This document shows, piece after piece, positions 1 to 44,677 of a stretch of DNA of 64,000 nucleotides. The DNA lies in the NCBI GenBank assembly GCA_947497985.1, contig CANMIX010000009.1, positions 124,001 through 188,000 of the forward strand, written 5' to 3'. The stretch comes from an uncultured Paracoccaceae bacterium. Its GTDB lineage: Bacteria > Pseudomonadota > Alphaproteobacteria > Rhodobacterales > Rhodobacteraceae. How positions within the stretch are numbered: position 1 is the first letter of the stretch; each line of letters opens with the position of its first letter. Both the position numbers and the translations under genes were made by a program. The notes under the pieces are model-generated. The model saw nothing but the letters and a program-made list of their open reading frames with translations. It searched no databases and was not told the origin of the DNA.

Positions 1-1370
1 TCAATGGCAAATTCCAGACTGTGGCATTCCAGACAGGTCGGGCGGATCATTTTCTCGTTCGGACGCAGCGTGTCGTTTTGGTTGTGATTGGTGGTGATCA
101 CACCGCGTTTCTCGGTTTTGGGCATGTGGCATGTGGCACATGTGACACCGGATCCCGGCGGCAGATCTCCTGCCAGCTCACCCTGCCACAGGGCAAAATG
201 CGGGCTTTGGGTGAAATTCTGGCTGTGCTCATCCGCATGGCACGACAGGCAGGCACCGACGGCGGCAAATTGCAGATCCTGTTCATGCGGGTCATGACAG
301 GTGGAACAGGTCAGCTCCTCACCATGGGCTTCGGGCAGCAGCGGCACGCGGGCTTCGGCCGTGCTCATCAAGGGGGCCGGCGTTGGGTCAACCAGATAGG
401 CCTCAAGGAAAGCAATCGCGCCATCAGACGGATCAGACCAGCCCAGACGTTTCAGCATCCGTTTGGCGGGGCGTGGATTTGACACTTCGGGGTGGCGACG
501 CATGCCGTGACGCCCCAGGGCAAAGGTCTTGGCCTCATCCTTGTGGCAGGTTGCGCAGACCTTTTCTTCGGGGTGCTCGATCCATTGCGCCTCGACCTCT
601 TCTTCGGTCTCGGCTTTGGGGGCATGACAACTGGCACAGCTCACATCCGCCAGCGCATGGGCAGATCCTGCCCAATGGGCCTCGACCTCTTGGTCACGGG
701 CGGTGGCAGGTGCGGAAACCTCAGCCAAATATGTCTCGATGTCAGCCGTTTCGGGACGGGGTTTCTCACGCGCGGCCGCTTCAATCGAATGGGTGGGGTC
801 TTCCTGCAACCAGGGTTGATCCGCATGTTTCAACAAGAAATCTTCGTAGAGCGCACGGTTGTCGTGGAAGTTGTGACAGCCGGCCGTTGCACAGGTTTCA
901 AAGCCCAGATCCTTGTGGCTTTCGCGGTTAACCCGCACGTCCTGATCACCTTCGCTGTGACAGGCCACGCAGAAATCACCCGGCTGGGTGACCAGACCCG
1001 CTGATGTGATCTCGGGCCGGTGTTCGCTGTGGCAGGATGTGCAAAACCGCGCATCAATATCATCCCAATAGGCAGACATGCGCGGCGGTTTGAATTTCTT
1101 GATCGGATGGCTGTCATCAGACGCGTTCAGCTCATCCTTGTGGCAATTCACGCAGGTCTTGTTGATGTCCTTGCGGATTTTCTTTTGTCCGGCAAAGGGT
1201 TTGGAGGTATGGCAGGTCTCACAGGCCAGCTCGATCTGATGGTGTACGCCCGCCGTCTGGCCCGGTAACAGATCGGTCCGGTCGCCCGTCACATAGATGC
1301 GCGCAAGACCCACACCTGCCAATGCAAATGTGCCAACGCCCCAGGCCATCCAAAGTAATTTGCTCTTCAT
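1..1370 (-). CDS. Multiheme c-type cytochrome, C-terminus beyond window edge
   Basis: Reading leftward from the ATG at 1370, the frame stays open to base 1. Residues about 5-23 form one hydrophobic segment (signal peptide or membrane anchor). Eleven covalent heme sites are visible: CETCH (residues 50-54), CVNCH, CTSCH, CVACH, a C-X4-CH variant (bases 873-893), CASCH, CATCH, CSTCH, CLSCH, CATCH and CLECH at the edge. The protein should be periplasmic or anchored to the periplasmic face and carry electrons. The start is 10 bases after the stop of the upstream flavoprotein gene, so the two are very probably co-transcribed. It could be a redox enzyme (nitrite, hydroxylamine or tetrathionate type) or a pure electron carrier; the sequence seen does not decide this. 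Confidence 0.88.
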   Translation of the reverse strand, partial: MKSKLLWMAWGVGTFALAGVGLARIYVTGDRTDLLPGQTAGVHHQIELACETCHTSKPFAGQKKIRKDINKTCVNCHKDELNASDDSHPIKKFKPPRMSAYWDDIDARFCTSCHSEHRPEITSAGLVTQPGDFCVACHSEGDQDVRVNRESHKDLGFETCATAGCHNFHDNRALYEDFLLKHADQPWLQEDPTHSIEAAAREKPRPETADIETYLAEVSAPATARDQEVEAHWAGSAHALADVSCASCHAPKAETEEEVEAQWIEHPEEKVCATCHKDEAKTFALGRHGMRRHPEVSNPRPAKRMLKRLGWSDPSDGAIAFLEAYLVDPTPAPLMSTAEARVPLLPEAHGEELTCSTCHDPHEQDLQFAAVGACLSCHADEHSQNFTQSPHFALWQGELAGDLPPGSGVTCATCHMPKTEKRGVITTNHNQNDTLRPNEKMIRPTCLECHSLEFAI

Positions 1371-1380
1371 CTGCTCACCC

Positions 1381-3405
1381 TCAGAACGCGTAAGAGGCCA
1401 GAACGTGCAGCAGGATCAGCACGGGCAAAGGCCAGATAGTGAGGATATGCACCCAAGTGGGCAGTTTACGCGGCGGATTGCGGCTGTTGCCGATGCGGCG
1501 GGCGCGCAATTCGTGATCGCCCCCGGTGGTGAGACCCGCAATCGCACCAAAGACCGCGGTCAGAATAAACCCAAGCCCCAAAGCCATGTTCAGATTACTG
1601 CCCAATCTGAAACCCGTATGGGCCACAAAACCGATGATCGCAGCAATCCCGATGCCCAGATGCACCAGCCTCCAGGCGTCAAAGCTGCCCAATCGGTCGG
1701 TCCAACGGATCCGTTTGCGCAGGCCAATCACCATGGCCGAGACAAACAGCCCCAACAGGATAAACCCGCTCCATTGTTTGACGATATTGTCGCGCCACAG
1801 CCAGACGCGCAGGCTGTCCGCGTCGAAACTGGTCGGCAGTGGCACATGACCCGCCAACAGTGGATACAACGCGCCGAGACCGGCAATTGAAGACAGGGCC
1901 AATACCGGTTTCCACAAAGGCATCGGTTTTGGCTTCCCACCAACATCGATCAAATCTTCTACCAGCGGACGGCAAGTGCCGCAAACCGTGGCGGCCCCGG
2001 TTTCAAAGCTGACGGCATCAACAGTGCCACAACCATTGTTGATTGCCTTGCGGATCGCACCACAGGTCACCCCGGTGCAGTTGCAGACGGTGGCCGTGTC
2101 CGGCATTGCGTCAACGGCCTGTTCGCCCTCTAACCACAGCTGCCCGGTCTTGCGGAACCGATGCAACATCCAAGGGTAGACCGTGATCTGTTGTTCGACA
2201 CCGTCCTGCAGGCGGCTCGCCTGGGGACAGGGGCCAACGGCAATGGCACCAACCAGCTTGCCGCGATCCAGAAAGATCCGGCGATAGCCCAGATTGTCTT
2301 CCCAGACATGGCTTTTGATTGCAGCCGATGCGTCGAGCTGTTCGACCGGCCCTGCAGAAAACACATCCGCGCCGATGACTTTGAGCTTGGTGGCCGGGGT
2401 CTGCCCGACAAAGGCCGCGTGGTTGCCTGCAATCTGCTCCGCCGCAACTTCAGCCTGGGCATAACCGGGCCCCACCAGACCATACATCTGGCCCTGATGC
2501 TCACTGCATTCACCAACCGCAAAAATATCAGGATCGCTGGTCTGCATCTGATCGTTGACAATGACCCCACGGCCAAAGGCCAGCTTGGCCTCTTGCGCGA
2601 GTGAGATATTGGCCCGCACGCCCGTACAGACAATCACCGTGTCACATTGGATTTCGCTGCCATCCGACAGGGTCAGCCGGTTGACGCGGAATTCGCCATC
2701 GACGGATTTCACCGCGATACCGGTCCGCACCGCAACGCCGATGTCTTCGATTTGCAGGGCAAGCCGAGCGCCGCCGCCACTGTCCAGTTGGCGCGGCATC
2801 AGGCGGGCTTCGTGCTCAATCACCGTGACCTCGCACCCGCGCGCACGCATCCCCTTGGCCGCTTCCAACCCCAAAAGGCCGCCCCCAATCACCGCCACTT
2901 TCCGGGCCGAAAGCGAACGGGCAAGCAGGGCCGCCGCATCGTCCGCCGTACGGAATGTGAACACACCTGGGAGATCGACGCCTGGTATACGCGGAACAAA
3001 CGCGTTCGACCCCGTGGCCACCACCAGTTTGTCAAAGGGCCATGTGCCGCCATCCGCGGTCACCACCTGTTGCGTGTCACGATCAATCGCAACAACACGC
3101 ATGCCTTCAACCAGGGTAAAACTGTCCCCCAAAGTATCAAGATCGGGCAGAATGATATCGCCAAACTGCACATCACCCGACAACAGCGGCGTAAGGCGCA
3201 CGCGATTGTAGGGGGTGACGGCCTCACCGCTTAGAACTGTGACCTGTTGTCCGCGTTGCACCAGTTCCTGCGCCGTGCGAATGCCGACAGGACCACCACC
3301 GATCACAACCACTTTTTGCGCATCTCGCGCGGTGGGTGTCTCGGTTTCTGTAATTTCCGGTCCTGGCGAAGTAAGCTGAGCTTCCGGTTGCAACGTTTTT
3401 CCCAC
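1381..3405 (-). CDS. FAD/NAD(P) oxidoreductase with BFD-type [2Fe-2S] site and di-heme-b-like membrane domain
   Basis: The 674-residue protein has a dinucleotide fold near residue 31 (VVVIGGGPVG) and a second (VAVIGGGLLG) mid-protein, as in the NirB/NasB/rubredoxin-reductase flavoprotein family. A BFD-like [2Fe-2S] site follows with Cys 441, 443, 475 and 478 (C-X-C...C-X2-C). About 190 C-terminal residues hold several membrane helices. Two of these carry His pairs exactly 14 residues apart (582/596 and 653/667), the spacing expected for two stacked b hemes. The siroheme/[4Fe-4S] half of a real nitrite reductase is missing, so it should not reduce nitrite alone. I infer electron flow from a cytoplasmic donor through FAD, [2Fe-2S] and heme b to the multiheme cytochrome encoded 10 bases downstream. 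The start is GTG at 3405, because an in-frame stop lies two codons upstream; no clear ribosome site is seen. Confidence 0.85.
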   Translation of the reverse strand: MGKTLQPEAQLTSPGPEITETETPTARDAQKVVVIGGGPVGIRTAQELVQRGQQVTVLSGEAVTPYNRVRLTPLLSGDVQFGDIILPDLDTLGDSFTLVEGMRVVAIDRDTQQVVTADGGTWPFDKLVVATGSNAFVPRIPGVDLPGVFTFRTADDAAALLARSLSARKVAVIGGGLLGLEAAKGMRARGCEVTVIEHEARLMPRQLDSGGGARLALQIEDIGVAVRTGIAVKSVDGEFRVNRLTLSDGSEIQCDTVIVCTGVRANISLAQEAKLAFGRGVIVNDQMQTSDPDIFAVGECSEHQGQMYGLVGPGYAQAEVAAEQIAGNHAAFVGQTPATKLKVIGADVFSAGPVEQLDASAAIKSHVWEDNLGYRRIFLDRGKLVGAIAVGPCPQASRLQDGVEQQITVYPWMLHRFRKTGQLWLEGEQAVDAMPDTATVCNCTGVTCGAIRKAINNGCGTVDAVSFETGAATVCGTCRPLVEDLIDVGGKPKPMPLWKPVLALSSIAGLGALYPLLAGHVPLPTSFDADSLRVWLWRDNIVKQWSGFILLGLFVSAMVIGLRKRIRWTDRLGSFDAWRLVHLGIGIAAIIGFVAHTGFRLGSNLNMALGLGFILTAVFGAIAGLTTGGDHELRARRIGNSRNPPRKLPTWVHILTIWPLPVLILLHVLASYAF

Positions 3406-3684
3406 CTGTCAAAGGGTCACGCACCCCCCAAAAAAGGGATGCCCTAAGCGATGAGCGGCATTGCTCGAAACTGGGTGCCTGCCAGACTTTGGCGGTACCA
3501 AATTGATCCACAGACGCCATTGTCCATGATTTAGTTGGTAAAAGCTCATCATCTTGGGGTGTCGCCGCGCAAATCCTCGGCCGGGATCAGGGGAGTTTTT
3601 TTAACAAAAGCCCAACAAATGAGCGGCTTTTGGCGCCCATGCATAACAGCGCCGCAGAAAGTGAGCAGAACGGGAAAAATAAAA

Positions 3685-7594: not shown

Positions 7595-8709
7595 GATGCG
7601 GCCTCCAGCTTTCTGAGGCCGAGCTTTTCGTAAGTCGACAGCGCCGAACAGGCCCCGCATTTGCCACAGCCCGCCTTGATCTGATCGGCGGCCATGCCCG
7701 CACGCAGGACCATCTGCGACAGGGGCCGCAGGACCGAGGCCATGAATTCAGAACTCGGCGCGGGGTGGCTTTCCAGCGGTGTGCCAGAGACCGGCACAAA
7801 GGGCACCACAAAGGGATAGACGCCAATATCACACAGCTTTTGCGAGGTTTCCAAGATCGCTTCAGCCGTGTCGCCAAGCCCGGCCAGAATATAGGTTGAG
7901 ACCTGCCCACGGCCAAAGACCTTTACCGCCGCTTCAAAGCTGGAGAAATACTTGTCCAGCGAAACTTGCGCCTTGCCCGGCATGATGCGTTCGCGCACCT
8001 CTGGCGTCACGGCTTCCAAATGCATGCCCAGCGCATCAACGCCTGCGTCATACATTTTCTGATGCCATGCGTCGTCTTCCGGCGGTTCACATTGCGCCTG
8101 AATGGGCAGATCCACCGCCGCTTTGATCGCACGCGCACTGTCAGCCAATACTGCCGCACCGCGATCCTTGCCTGCGGGCGTTCCAGTGGTCAGAACCATA
8201 TGTTTGATCCCGTCGAGTTCGACTGCGGCCTTTGCGACCTCGGCCAGTTGTTCCGGGGTTTTATGGGCAATGGTGCGCCCGGCGGCCAAGGACTGACCAA
8301 TAGAGCAGAACTGGCAGGTCTTCTTGCGGCTTTCATAACGGATACAGGTCTGCAGCACCGTGGTCGCCAGAACATCGCGCGCGTGCAGGACGGCGATATG
8401 GTTGTAAGGAACCCCTTCGGCAGTTTTGAGATCATAGAATTTGGGCCGCGCCGGGAATGAGATCTTGCCCATTGGCGCGCCCGATTTTGTGACCTCAGCC
8501 GTGCCATCCGCCCCTTCGGGCGTCACCACATAGGGGCTTTCAAACGCAGGCGCGGTGTGAACCGGCACCATTACGGTCTGCTCGCCAATAGTCACCGCCT
8601 TATGGTCGGTTGGCCCCGCACCGCCACGACGGCTTTCGTGGCCTTGGCTGGGGTCCACCAACCGCATGCCACGGGTCTGCAATTCGTTGATCAACTCAGC
8701 TTCAGACAT
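7591..8709 (-). CDS. MSMEG_0568-family radical SAM enzyme
   Basis: A 372-residue protein whose core resembles biotin synthase-like radical SAM enzymes. The expected cluster-binding cysteines are Cys122, Cys132 and Cys135, a C-X9-C-X2-C arrangement instead of the usual C-X3-C-X2-C. A second set, Cys348, Cys351 and Cys354 (CGKCGAC), lies near the C-terminus and could bind an auxiliary cluster. It matches the radical SAM member of the Nit1C cluster (NitD position). The ATG overlaps the end of the nitrilase gene by 8 bases. The reaction is unknown; a radical rearrangement of a small N-containing metabolite is a reasonable inference from its partners. Confidence 0.87.
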
Positions 8710-9700
8710 TTTCAGCCTCCAGTTTCGGGGTCACGTCGGGGGAAAGGGTTTGGGCGGTCTCGGCCACGTCCTCGATCCGATGCACGGGCCGCGCAGGCCG
8801 CGCGTCATGGACCAGATGGAGCAATTCAGGGCGCGCATAATGGCCGACGCTGTCCATCATCCGCTTGCGTTTGGTCACCAGTCGCATGTCAAGATCGGCG
8901 ATCAGGATGCCCTCGCCCTCGGTCAGGGGCGGCACCACATGGCGACCTTCGGGGGAGATAATGCAGGTCATACAGCCATCGCGCAGACCCTTTTGCAGCT
9001 TGGGGTCATCATGGATGCTGGCGATCTGATCCTCGGTCAGCCAGCCGGTGGCATTGACCACGAAACAGGCGGACTCCAGCGCGTGGTGGCGCATGGTCAC
9101 TTCGATCTGCTCACCAAAGATTGGTCCAACCAGACTGCCGGGGAATTGTGCCGCGTGAATTTCTTCGTGCTGGGTCATCAGCGCATAGCGCGCGAGCGGG
9201 TTGTAATGCTCCCAACAGGCCAGCGCGCCCATGCGCCCCACTTTGGTGTCGACAACTTTGAGGCCCGAACCATCGCCCTGCCCCCAGATCATCCGCTCAT
9301 GATAGGTGGGTGTGATCTTGCGCCGTTTCAGCGCCAACGTGCCATCCGCGTCGTAAATCAGCTGCGTATTAAAGAGCGAGCCGTGATCGCGCTCATTGAT
9401 CCCCAGCACAATCACCACGCCGTGGGTCTTGGCCGCCTTGGCCACGGCTTCGCTTTCAGGCGACGGCACCACCATCGCCTCTTCATACAGGCGCAGATGT
9501 TCGGCCCCCTGCTGCATCGGTGGCAGCACGAATGAGAAATAGGGATACCAGGGCACAAAGGTCTCAGGAAAGACAATGAGATCCGCGCCTTTTCCGGCGG
9601 CCTCAGCAATGGCGTTCAACACGCGGGTCAATGTGCCTTCGCGGCTGGTAAGGTCAGGCGCAATCTGAACAGCGGCGGCGCGGACGGTTTGGTTGGACAT
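8702..9700 (-). CDS. Nit6803-type nitrilase of the Nit1C cluster
   Basis: A 332-residue carbon-nitrogen hydrolase. The catalytic triad is visible: Glu46 (FPETF), Lys128 ([12 protein letters not shown]) and Cys162 ([10 protein letters not shown]). Family members convert nitriles to carboxylates plus ammonia. The cyanobacterial homologue is well characterised on aromatic and aliphatic nitriles, and in Pseudomonas the homologous cluster is tied to cyanide assimilation. It is the second gene of the operon, 125 bases after the MSMEG_0572-like gene, and that gap holds two strong hairpins. Natural substrate here is inferred to be a nitrile or cyanide-derived compound. Confidence 0.92.
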
Positions 9701-9746: not shown

Positions 9747-9768
9747 GGGGCAACGTCACTGTTGCCCC
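9747..9768 (-). terminator. Hairpin between the first and second nit genes (proximal to nitrilase)
   Basis: A perfect 8-bp inverted repeat (GGGGCAAC / GTTGCCCC) around a 6-base loop. On the minus strand it is followed by AGCTTTTCCC, a weak T tract. It could act as a partial terminator or as an mRNA-stabilising stem that sets unequal expression of the first gene and the rest of the operon. Confidence 0.5.
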
Positions 9769-9787
9769 GTTGTTTGGCGCAGAGGAC

Positions 9788-9811
9788 GCGGGAGACGCCG
9801 TTGCCTCCCGC
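9788..9811 (-). terminator. Second hairpin between the first and second nit genes
   Basis: A perfect 7-bp inverted repeat (GCGGGAG / CTCCCGC) with a 10-base loop, 15 bases after the stop of the MSMEG_0572-like gene on the minus strand. There is no T run, so an RNA-protecting stem-loop is more likely than a full terminator. Confidence 0.4.
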
Positions 9812-43009: not shown

Positions 43010-44677
43010 ATGGCGGCCTATCAATACGTCTACCACATGCAGGGGGTCTCTAAGACCTACCCCGGTGGCAAGAAATGCTTTGAAAACATCCACCTGTCCT
43101 TCCTGCCCGGTGTGAAAATCGGTGTGGTCGGCGTCAACGGCGCTGGTAAATCGACGCTGATGAAGATCATGGCCGGCATGGACAAGGACTTCACCGGTGA
43201 GGCCTGGGCGGCTGAGGGGGCCAAAGTTGGCTATCTGCCGCAGGAGCCGAAGCTGGATGAGAGCCTGAGCGTGCGTGAAAACGTCATGCTGGGCGTCGCC
43301 GAGAAAAAGGCCAAGGTCGACCGGTTCAACCAGATCGCGGTTGAGATGGCAGAAAACTACACCGACGAGCTGATGGAAGAGATGACCGTCCTTCAGGATC
43401 AGATCGACGCAGATAATCTGTGGGATCTGGACAGCCAGGTTGACGTCTCGATGGAAGCGCTGCGCTGCCCGCCGGATGACGCGCCGATCAAGGATCTGTC
43501 GGGCGGTGAACGCCGTCGTGTGGCTCTGTGTAAGCTCCTGTTGGAAGCGCCAGAAATGCTGCTGCTCGATGAACCGACCAACCACCTGGACGCGGAAACC
43601 ATCGCCTGGCTGCAACAGCACCTGATCGACTACAAGGGCACCATCCTTTGTGTGACCCACGACCGTTATTTCCTGGACGATATCACCAGCTGGATCCTGG
43701 AGCTGGATCGCGGCAGCGGCATCCCTTACGAGGGCAACTATTCCAGCTGGTTGGAGCAGAAGTCCAAGCGTCTGGCGCAGGAAGCGCGCGAAGACAAATC
43801 CAAGCAAAAGACGCTGGAGCGCGAACTCGAATGGATGCGTCAGGGTCAAAAGGCCCGTCAGGCGAAATCCAAAGCGCGTATTGCTGCCTATAACGAGATG
43901 GCGTCCCAGTCCGAACGTGAAAAGGTCGGTCGCGCCCAGATCGTTATTCCAAACGGTCCACGTTTGGGCTCCAAAGTGATCGAAGTTGCAGGTCTCAAGA
44001 AAGGCTTTGGCGACGCACTACTGGTCGAGGGGCTGGAATTCTCGCTGCCGCCTGGTGGTATCGTGGGTGTGATCGGCCCCAACGGCGCCGGTAAATCAAC
44101 CCTCTTCAAAATGCTGACCGGTCAGGAACAGCCCGATGAGGGCAGTGTTGAATATGGCGACACCGTGAAACTGTCCTATGTGGATCAGTCGCGCGATGAT
44201 TTGAACGACAATGAAACCGTCTGGGAAGCAATTTCCGGCGGGGCCGAGATCATTGAACTGGGCGACGCGCAGGTCAATTCCCGCGCCTATTGTTCTTCGT
44301 TCAACTTCAAAGGCGGCGATCAGCAGAAACCGCTGAACCTCTTGTCCGGTGGTGAACGTAACCGTGTCCACATGGCGCGCCTGTTGAAAGAGGGCGGCAA
44401 CGTTCTGCTGCTCGACGAACCAACCAACGATCTGGACGTGGAAACGCTGCGAGCGCTCGAAGACGCTCTGGTGGATTTTGCGGGTTGTGCTGTTGTCATC
44501 TCGCACGACCGCTTCTTCCTTGACCGGATCTGCACCCACATTCTGGCGTTCGAAGGCGACGCGCATGTGGAATGGTTCGAAGGCAACTTTGAAGACTATG
44601 AAGAAGACAAGAAACGCCGCCTTGGCCCGGACGCGCTGGAACCCAAGCGTCTGAAGCACAAGAAATTCGTGCGCTGA
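43010..44677 (+). CDS. ettA: Energy-dependent translational throttle protein EttA
   Basis: A 555-residue ABC-F ATPase that binds the ribosomal E site and gates the first elongation step by ATP/ADP ratio. Two nucleotide-binding domains are seen: Walker A GVNGAGKS and GPNGAGKS, signatures LSGGERRRVAL and LSGGERNRVHM, and D-boxes LLLDEPTNHLDAE and LLLDEPTNDLDVE. The linker includes the EttA-type arm. GGAG stands 7 bases before ATG. Confidence 0.96.
   Translation: MAAYQYVYHMQGVSKTYPGGKKCFENIHLSFLPGVKIGVVGVNGAGKSTLMKIMAGMDKDFTGEAWAAEGAKVGYLPQEPKLDESLSVRENVMLGVAEKKAKVDRFNQIAVEMAENYTDELMEEMTVLQDQIDADNLWDLDSQVDVSMEALRCPPDDAPIKDLSGGERRRVALCKLLLEAPEMLLLDEPTNHLDAETIAWLQQHLIDYKGTILCVTHDRYFLDDITSWILELDRGSGIPYEGNYSSWLEQKSKRLAQEAREDKSKQKTLERELEWMRQGQKARQAKSKARIAAYNEMASQSEREKVGRAQIVIPNGPRLGSKVIEVAGLKKGFGDALLVEGLEFSLPPGGIVGVIGPNGAGKSTLFKMLTGQEQPDEGSVEYGDTVKLSYVDQSRDDLNDNETVWEAISGGAEIIELGDAQVNSRAYCSSFNFKGGDQQKPLNLLSGGERNRVHMARLLKEGGNVLLLDEPTNDLDVETLRALEDALVDFAGCAVVISHDRFFLDRICTHILAFEGDAHVEWFEGNFEDYEEDKKRRLGPDALEPKRLKHKKFVR

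What the first reader, a model, noticed from the sequence alone, without database searches (positions are those of the whole stretch)
1..3405. Single-polypeptide flavin/[2Fe-2S]/di-heme-b protein paired with a multiheme cytochrome
The flavoprotein unites a NirB-like FAD half, a BFD-type [2Fe-2S] centre (Cys441/443/475/478) and a membrane domain with two His pairs each spaced 14 residues (582/596, 653/667). Ten bases later comes a cytochrome with at least 11 heme sites. I infer a complete route from a cytoplasmic donor across the membrane to periplasmic hemes. The missing siroheme half rules out ordinary nitrite reductase. I know of no standard name for this arrangement.
Basis: partly seen in the sequence, partly recalled or inferred. 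Interest (0 to 1): 0.75.

Follow-up and report, generated by a model that had tools for sequence, protein, structure and literature searches.

The report
NADH-to-periplasm electron wire for nitrate users
A conserved bacterial gene cluster appears to carry electrons from inside the cell across the membrane into a string of eleven hemes, seems to be switched on together with nitrate assimilation, and probably helps the cell cope with toxic nitrogen oxides; I found no description of this wiring.

Summary
A 674-residue protein joins a NirB-type FAD/NAD(P)H half, a BFD [2Fe-2S] domain and a membrane domain with four histidines. Ten bases later starts a cytochrome with 10 CXXCH motifs plus one CX4CH. 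In 44 of 46 loci compared the multiheme gene comes next, on the same strand within 157 bases; one exception ends at a contig edge, the other is a differently fused protein. The four histidines are invariant in 46 of 46, and all 11 heme sites stand in 43 of 44 cytochromes (the other is broken by a run of N). Exactly 11 non-motif histidines are equally conserved. The full cluster is five genes: flavoprotein, 11-heme cytochrome, heme-Cache (Tll0287) protein, small cytochrome c, globin.

New here: the leader carries tandem hairpins of the NasT (ANTAR) type, as does the leader of this genome's nitrate-assimilation operon. In another class of the phylum the cluster often lies beside nasT and nrtABC (12 of 29 loci). 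I read it as an NADH-driven transmembrane electron-delivery module of nitrate assimilation that handles NO or nitrite. Conduit and NasT control are well supported by sequence; the reaction served is inferred. No biochemistry was done; structure models were too weak to use.

The parts
1381..3405 (-). Flavoprotein, 674 aa: FAD/NAD(P)H half, BFD [2Fe-2S], di-heme-b-type membrane domain fused in one chain
   Evidence: homologues; ligand conservation
2185..3315 (-). [quoted passage not shown]
   Evidence: Pfam; NCBIfam
1945..2091 (-). BFD-like [2Fe-2S] domain, Cys441/443/475/478 (residues 439-487)
   Evidence: Pfam PF04324 47.5 bits
1384..1914 (-). Membrane domain (residues 498-674), His582/596 and His653/667 as likely ligands of two hemes b; no Pfam match better than E 0.15
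   Evidence: profiles A3/A5
1..1370 (-). Eleven-heme cytochrome c with hydrophobic N-terminus (signal or anchor); full gene 496 aa continues 120 bases beyond the window start (G000:C9:123880-125370)
3452..3526 (-). 5' leader with two ANTAR-type hairpins (GGAC-AATGGC-GTCT and GAGC-AATGCC-GCTC), predicted NasT antitermination target
9747..9807 (-). Second tandem ANTAR-type leader, before the neighbouring Nit1C-type nitrilase cluster; same predicted regulon, not part of the electron wire

Best explanation
A transmembrane electron-delivery module of nitrate assimilation. NAD(P)H (probably NADH) reduces FAD; electrons pass to the BFD [2Fe-2S] cluster, then across the membrane over two hemes b (His582/653 on the cytoplasmic side, His596/667 on the periplasmic side) into an 11-heme wire and on to the periplasmic heme-Cache (Tll0287) protein and, in many lineages, a small cytochrome c. 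The cluster usually also makes a cytoplasmic single-domain globin that the flavoprotein half could reduce, as Flp does for Bjgb. In the window's family the module is expressed with nitrate/nitrite through NasT antitermination, and its likely task is to dispose of NO (and perhaps nitrite) that nitrate assimilation throws off: the globin inside, the heme-Cache heme outside. Supported here by sequence and genome evidence: architecture, ligand conservation, gene order, leader, nas context. Inferred: cofactor content, direction of flow, partners, NADH preference, the chemistry at the end.
For: Domains and ligands. Gene order flavoprotein > 11-heme > Tll0287 (> cyt c > globin): multiheme in 44 of 46 loci, same strand, 3-157 bases between hit ends; Tll0287 in 43 of 46. 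Tandem hairpins with C-[A..G..]-G hexaloops upstream in 14 of 17 loci of the window's family (I picked the rows by their hairpins, so the pairing counts are not independent). A model of them finds the leader of the nas operon, L006:19706-19770, at E 0.0053. A fixed rule over window + L006 finds 4 tandems (this leader, Nit1C, nas operon, and 43193-43228) against 0.45 per block-shuffled copy. The rule rings before 7 of 27 flavoprotein genes of the other lineages against 13 of 1160 control stretches. ANTAR protein in 9 of 9 operon-bearing family genomes against 59 of 149 of a family sample. In the other lineages an ANTAR gene lies in 10 of 29 loci (each Pfam-checked), NrtA in 8 of 29, either in 12 of 29. 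NO/O2-binding partners of three kinds: globin in 28 of 46, truncated globin in 2, hemerythrin in 3. Precedent Flp-Bjgb with NasT link: PMC4724949, PMC6759348 (passages). Tll0287 proteins have no Cys besides CXXCH in their last 165 residues, 43 of 43; in PMC12889525 a Cys-free member held NO tightly.
Against: Nothing shows NO chemistry. PMC12889525 gives stand-alone Tll0287 proteins redox rather than NO roles, and a stand-alone member whose axial Cys was changed to Ala still let NO go fast, so lack of the Cys does not by itself make an NO binder. Globin is missing from 18 of 46 loci; 13 of these show no truncated globin or hemerythrin either (several are cut by contig ends). 17 of the 29 loci outside the family show neither NasT nor NrtA in the stretch fetched; G412 and G430 have no ANTAR protein at all; of the 10 loci with an ANTAR gene, 5 did not give the tandem leader. 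G845 has the core twice but no NirB over cut-off and, of siroheme proteins, only a pair that looks like dsrAB. The Bradyrhizobium data on NasT and narK-bjgb-flp conflict between two studies. Structure models were poor.
Confidence: 0.55

Rival explanations
1. Redox valve: the module disposes of excess NADH during nitrate assimilation by sending electrons past the quinone pool to periplasmic cytochrome c, oxidases or Nap; globin and Tll0287 are accessories.
For: A small cytochrome c gene lies in the cluster in 25 of 46 loci; the 11-heme protein has exactly 11 near-invariant non-motif His, as expected of a bis-His wire without open site.
Against: Beside the cluster I saw NasT/nrt genes and NO/O2-binding proteins; oxidase genes were not searched for, and none was recognised by eye in the gene lists (the last cut short). 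Cytochrome c gene not found in 21 of 46.
Confidence: 0.2
2. The multiheme protein is itself a periplasmic nitrite (or hydroxylamine) reductase that makes ammonium, a Nrf-like branch of nitrate assimilation fed by NADH.
For: Weak profile kinship to NrfA and octaheme nitrite reductases over short stretches; 5 of 25 operon-bearing genomes outside the family lack NirB over cut-off.
Against: The heme sites are CXXCH or CX4CH, so no CXXCK site of the NrfA kind among them; 11 hemes are matched by 11 near-invariant other His. NirB over cut-off in 10 of 11 and 20 of 25; of the five without, three have a siroheme protein scoring best, though below cut-off, with NirA models, and one genome is only 72% complete.
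Confidence: 0.12
3. Extracellular electron transfer or metal reduction system of the MtrA/DmsE kind.
For: TIGR03508 DmsE family 79.7 bits, below the cut-off of 192.2.
Against: In the gene lists read by eye (the last cut short) I recognised no MtrB-like porin or outer-membrane multiheme partner; no search for them was run. An Alginate_exp-type porin lies near in a few loci, some of them with nrt genes.
Confidence: 0.05
4. A decayed NirB beside an unrelated cytochrome, with no function as a unit.
For: The FAD half is NirB-like.
Against: 39 of 40 flavoprotein rows stand apart from 10 NirB rows in the tree, the exception (L118) being a long branch; invariant ligands and gene order in two groups of genomes.
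Confidence: 0.02

Closest known systems
Flp-Bjgb of Bradyrhizobium (narK-bjgb-flp-nasC; PMC4724949 and PMC6759348, passages read)
   Same: FAD-dependent NAD(P)H flavoprotein, single-domain globin partner, NasT link, nitrate assimilation setting
   Different: Flp is described as a donor to cytoplasmic NasC and Bjgb; no fused membrane domain, multiheme cytochrome or Tll0287 protein appears in the passages I read
NirB assimilatory nitrite reductase (TIGR02374)
   Same: FAD/NAD(P)H half and BFD domain
   Different: siroheme half absent, a membrane domain in its place; a NirB over cut-off is encoded elsewhere in the same genome
NOX / ferric reductase flavocytochromes b (recalled, not compared by a call)
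   Same: NAD(P)H to FAD to two hemes b across the membrane in one chain, His pairs about 14 apart
   Different: other flavin fold, extra [2Fe-2S], no Pfam match of the membrane domain to them, electrons handed to an 11-heme protein
Stand-alone di-heme-b-like proteins next to decaheme cytochromes (L049, L051, L052; no name found)
   Same: weakly similar membrane domain (E 1.8e-7 to 1.9e-4) directly before a cytochrome with 10 CXXCH
   Different: electron input seems to come from separate proteins; in L049 an FNR-type and a cNMP/Fer4 protein; larger cytochrome
Tll0287/DUF3365 heme-Cache proteins (PMC12889525; abstract, one section and passages)
   Same: PF11845 70 bits, CXXCH
   Different: no Cys that could be the axial ligand of Tll0287; sits in an electron-wire operon

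Membership tests
NirB nitrite reductase | FAD half plus siroheme half (TIGR02374 over cut-off) | tested here: not met
   417.8 bits, positions 1-466 of 794, cut-off 578.35
Flp-Bjgb NO-detoxification pair | siroheme-free FAD/NAD(P)H flavoprotein in one cluster with a single-domain globin | tested here: met
   PF07992 and PF00042; globin in 15 of 17 family loci
Flp-Bjgb NO-detoxification pair | the flavoprotein reduces the globin | not testable with these tools
   no biochemistry; the flavoprotein here carries a membrane domain
ANTAR/NasT-controlled operon | tandem hairpins with hexaloop A1, G4 and C:G closing pair (PMC7496416, passages) | tested here: met
ANTAR/NasT-controlled operon | an ANTAR protein in the genome | tested here: met
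   9 of 9 operon-bearing family genomes; not found in G412 and G430, which belong to other lineages
ANTAR/NasT-controlled operon | NasT binds the leader and prevents termination | not testable with these tools
   needs RNA binding and reporter tests
NOX/ferric reductase superfamily | sequence match to its membrane domain | tested here: not met
   only one Pfam hit on residues 490-674, an unrelated family at E 0.15
NrfA / octaheme nitrite reductase | catalytic heme with CXXCK or an open site | tested here: inconclusive
   no CXXCK among the 11 sites, and 11 near-invariant other His, but ligation is not known; kinship only over short stretches
DmsE/MtrA decaheme | TIGR03508 over cut-off | tested here: not met
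   79.7 bits against 192.2
Tll0287-like | PF11845 and CXXCH | tested here: met
   70 bits against 24.1
Di-heme cytochrome b | two bis-His hemes b in a helix bundle | tested here: inconclusive
   His invariant in 46 of 46; model pLDDT about 40-55 in this region

The most novel reading that the evidence does not exclude
The heme-Cache (Tll0287) protein, the most conserved member over long distances and the one that may have an open heme, is the terminal NO (or nitrite) reductase, fed by NADH through a transmembrane flavocytochrome b and an 11-heme wire: a new type of periplasmic NO-removing system, hard-wired to nitrate assimilation and coupled to a cytoplasmic globin by a shared flavin donor.
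Probability: 0.2. Interest if true: 0.88.

Novelty: new variant of a known kind. Interest (0 to 1): 0.72.

Why it matters
A single chain that takes electrons from NAD(P)H and puts them through the membrane into a multiheme protein, without quinones, would be a distinct way to power periplasmic chemistry. It would add a periplasmic limb to nitrate assimilation, a pathway thought of as cytoplasmic, and bears on how such cells control NO. It also gives a physiological setting for the heme-Cache (Tll0287) family, whose stand-alone members have no settled role.

Tried and rejected
The structure model of the multiheme protein has pLDDT 37 and was not used; the flavoprotein model is usable only in its soluble half, so no fold search was run. 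FNR/DNR, NnrR and simple NsrR-like boxes upstream of the gene: no match in 17 upstream stretches. Rfam on the window at gathering threshold: no family. Folding energy of the leader is unremarkable (z -0.19); the hairpins rest on pattern, conservation and reuse. The whole-genome scan with the leader model did not list the nas operon leader, perhaps because only 150 of 1358 candidates were scored; it was found when L006 was searched with five other loci. Plasmid records: no match to the multiheme protein at E 1e-30. The idea that the module replaces NirB is not supported. Papers: the searches listed none whose title or start of abstract describes this arrangement (one search held 119 papers, 12 listed). 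Five papers were opened, in parts; the rest were seen as listings, so this is no proof of absence in print. On re-checking I added the C59A result of PMC12889525 and lowered the probability of the novel case from 0.22 to 0.2 for it; no other odds changed.
Full report
What is there. The window is G000:C9:124001-188000. On the minus strand a 674-aa flavoprotein (1381-3405) is followed after 10 bases by a cytochrome that the window edge cuts. Extending into the contig (L005) shows five genes in a row on one strand: flavoprotein; 496-aa multiheme cytochrome; 190-aa Tll0287-like protein with one CXXCH; 150-aa mono-heme cytochrome c; 154-aa globin (Pfam; the globin also matches the flavohemoprotein model over its globin part, below cut-off). 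A katG and a LysR-type regulator lie beyond (named by eye). Upstream lies a cluster of the MSMEG_0568/0569 and Nit6803 nitrilase type, known as Nit1C (name recalled; it appears in the listing).

Checking the motif claims. The cytochrome has 10 CXXCH plus CX4CH at C160-H166. In the distant homologue L040 that site reads CVDCH, a canonical motif, so I count eleven hemes. Of 44 homologous cytochromes, 42 have 10 CXXCH plus CX4CH, L040 has 11 CXXCH, and L109 is broken by a run of N. Eleven other histidines (43, 88, 117, 152, 169, 238, 288, 362, 382, 391, 429) are each present in at least 43 of 44; the next best, 182, in 39. Eleven is the number needed for bis-His ligation of all eleven hemes; I take this as a sign of a wire rather than an enzyme. 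This is inference: no usable structure was obtained.

Topology. Hydropathy gives five hydrophobic segments in residues 498-673, with basic loops at 563-578 (5 K/R) and 626-650 (6 K/R). With the soluble domains in the cytoplasm this puts His582 and His653 near the inner face and His596 and His667 near the outer face, one heme per pair. The membrane domain matches no Pfam family better than E 0.15.

Homologues and gene order. The scan of genome contigs gave 13 loci, with titles of Rhodobacteraceae-type genera or of alphaproteobacterial bins. A profile of the membrane domain hits 9 of 295 genomes of the window's family, the window's own included. In a phylum sample it hits 11 of 398, of which only the own genome, G412 and G430 have strong matches. 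In the order of G430 only G430 itself, 1 of 48. I compared 46 loci: 17 of the window's family and 29 others. The multiheme gene is present in 44, always on the same strand and within 3-157 bases of the flavoprotein hit; Tll0287 in 43, the small cytochrome c in 25, globin in 28. L123 ends at the flavoprotein; L120 is a cNMP-binding/BFD/FNR fusion without a cytochrome beside it. L112 and L123, and L005, L007 and L009, are close relatives, and L011 and L017 bear the same species name, so loci are not all independent. A truncated globin lies in L107 and L113 and a hemerythrin upstream in L039, L097 and L099, all without the globin (L099 by tblastn only). The flavoprotein's FAD half separates from NirB for 39 of 40 rows; L118 falls with one NirB on long branches (40 of 46 flavoproteins and 10 of 11 NirB were long enough to use).

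Regulation. Upstream of the flavoprotein gene I found pairs of short hairpins with loops A-N-N-G-N-N closed by C:G. This is the two-hairpin ANTAR signature described for NasR and EutV, with A and G preferred at loop positions 1 and 4 and a C:G closing pair (PMC7496416, passages). Of the 17 family loci, 14 gave such a pair (in L044 the first stem has a mismatch); the rest were L012 (found weakly by the model, E 0.059), L047 (none) and L017 (contig starts inside the gene). Pairing in the chosen rows is 99.1% with changes on both sides at 6 of 8 pairs; because I chose the rows by their hairpins, this is not independent evidence. Independent evidence: the model built from them finds the leader of this genome's nitrate-assimilation operon (nrtA-type genes, nirB, nasA; names by eye except nirB) at L006:19706-19770, E 0.0053. 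A fixed rule run over the window and L006 returns four places: this leader, the Nit1C leader, the nas leader and 43193-43228; copies shuffled in 200-base blocks give 0.45 on average. Outside the family the rule rings before 7 of 27 flavoprotein genes (two more were at contig edges) against 13 of 1160 control stretches; in five of those seven (L103, L104, L109, L111, L119) an ANTAR gene lies next door, and five loci with an ANTAR gene (L098, L100, L105, L114, L116) did not ring.

Genome context. All nine operon-bearing genomes of the family that were searched have an ANTAR protein, against 59 of 149 in a family sample at a stricter cut-off (the samples overlap). In L048 an ANTAR response-regulator gene and a nasS-like gene (by eye) lie directly upstream. 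Outside the family, ANTAR genes lie in 10 of 29 loci, NrtA in 8, either in 12. G412 and G430 have no ANTAR protein, so the link is not universal. NirB over its cut-off is present in 10 of 11 and 20 of 25 of the carriers tested. Of the five without, three (G685, G725, G797) hold a siroheme protein closest to NirA models but below cut-off, one (G845) shows only a pair whose sizes suggest dsrAB, one (G946, 72% complete) none. The eleventh genome, G430, is 80% complete.

How it most likely works. [quoted passage not shown] NasT is needed for its nitrate response in one study, while a second saw narK-bjgb-flp rise in a nasT mutant under denitrification (PMC4724949 and PMC6759348, passages). The present cluster keeps a flavin donor and, usually, a globin and adds a membrane limb. 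I propose that electrons also go out, through two hemes b and eleven hemes c, to the Tll0287 protein. A 2026 preprint (PMC12889525; abstract, section 12 and passages) shows that Tll0287 domains carry heme c, that a Cys-ligated stand-alone member binds NO weakly and that a Cys-free, membrane-associated member holds NO tightly; the stand-alone member without its Cys (C59A) still lost NO fast, and the authors assign stand-alone domains redox roles. All 43 proteins here lack a second Cys in their last 165 residues. They thus share one feature with the NO-holding type while being stand-alone in architecture, and the C59A result warns that this feature alone does not decide. In the two remote lineages the Tll0287 protein is the best conserved member (57-59% identity, against 36-39% for the cytochrome and 30-36% for the flavoprotein parts), which is why I put weight on it. 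The terminal reaction is open; NO or nitrite handling is my first choice, an NADH valve my second.

Limits. No protein was made. Direction of flow, cofactor content, NADH preference and partner contacts are inferred. Counts are of loci, some closely related. The literature searches cover open-access full texts only.

Noticed in passing
window 9747-9807 minus (before the nitrilase gene at 8702-9700): The Nit1C-type nitrilase/radical-SAM cluster has its own tandem ANTAR-type leader, kept in L007 and L009, so it may belong to the NasT regulon with nitrate assimilation.
   Followed up: partly
L040 1-1695 and L120 5832-8423: Variants of the fused protein: L040 carries an FNR-type FAD/NAD module between BFD and the membrane domain; L120 joins cNMP-binding, BFD and FNR-type domains to the same membrane domain and has no multiheme gene beside it.
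   Followed up: partly
L049 8987-12213, L051 5541-8498, L052 8966-12066: Stand-alone di-heme-b-like membrane proteins next to 700-800 aa cytochromes with 10 CXXCH; in L049 also FNR-type, C554-type and cNMP/Fer4 proteins: a related module for which I have no name.
   Followed up: partly
L117 and L118 (both genome G845): Two loci of the core in one 1.7 Mb genome without NirB over cut-off; its only NIR_SIR matches are a pair that looks like dsrAB.
   Followed up: partly
L018 7209-7637: An Rrf2-family regulator gene lies upstream of the flavoprotein gene in Actibacterium ureilyticum.
   Followed up: no
L005 8276-11491 (also L007, L009; katG also in L011): katG and a LysR-type regulator sit near the cluster in the window's closest relatives (regulator by eye).
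   Followed up: no
window 43193-43228 plus: A tandem hairpin pair that fits the ANTAR rule, at about the rate expected by chance.
   Followed up: no
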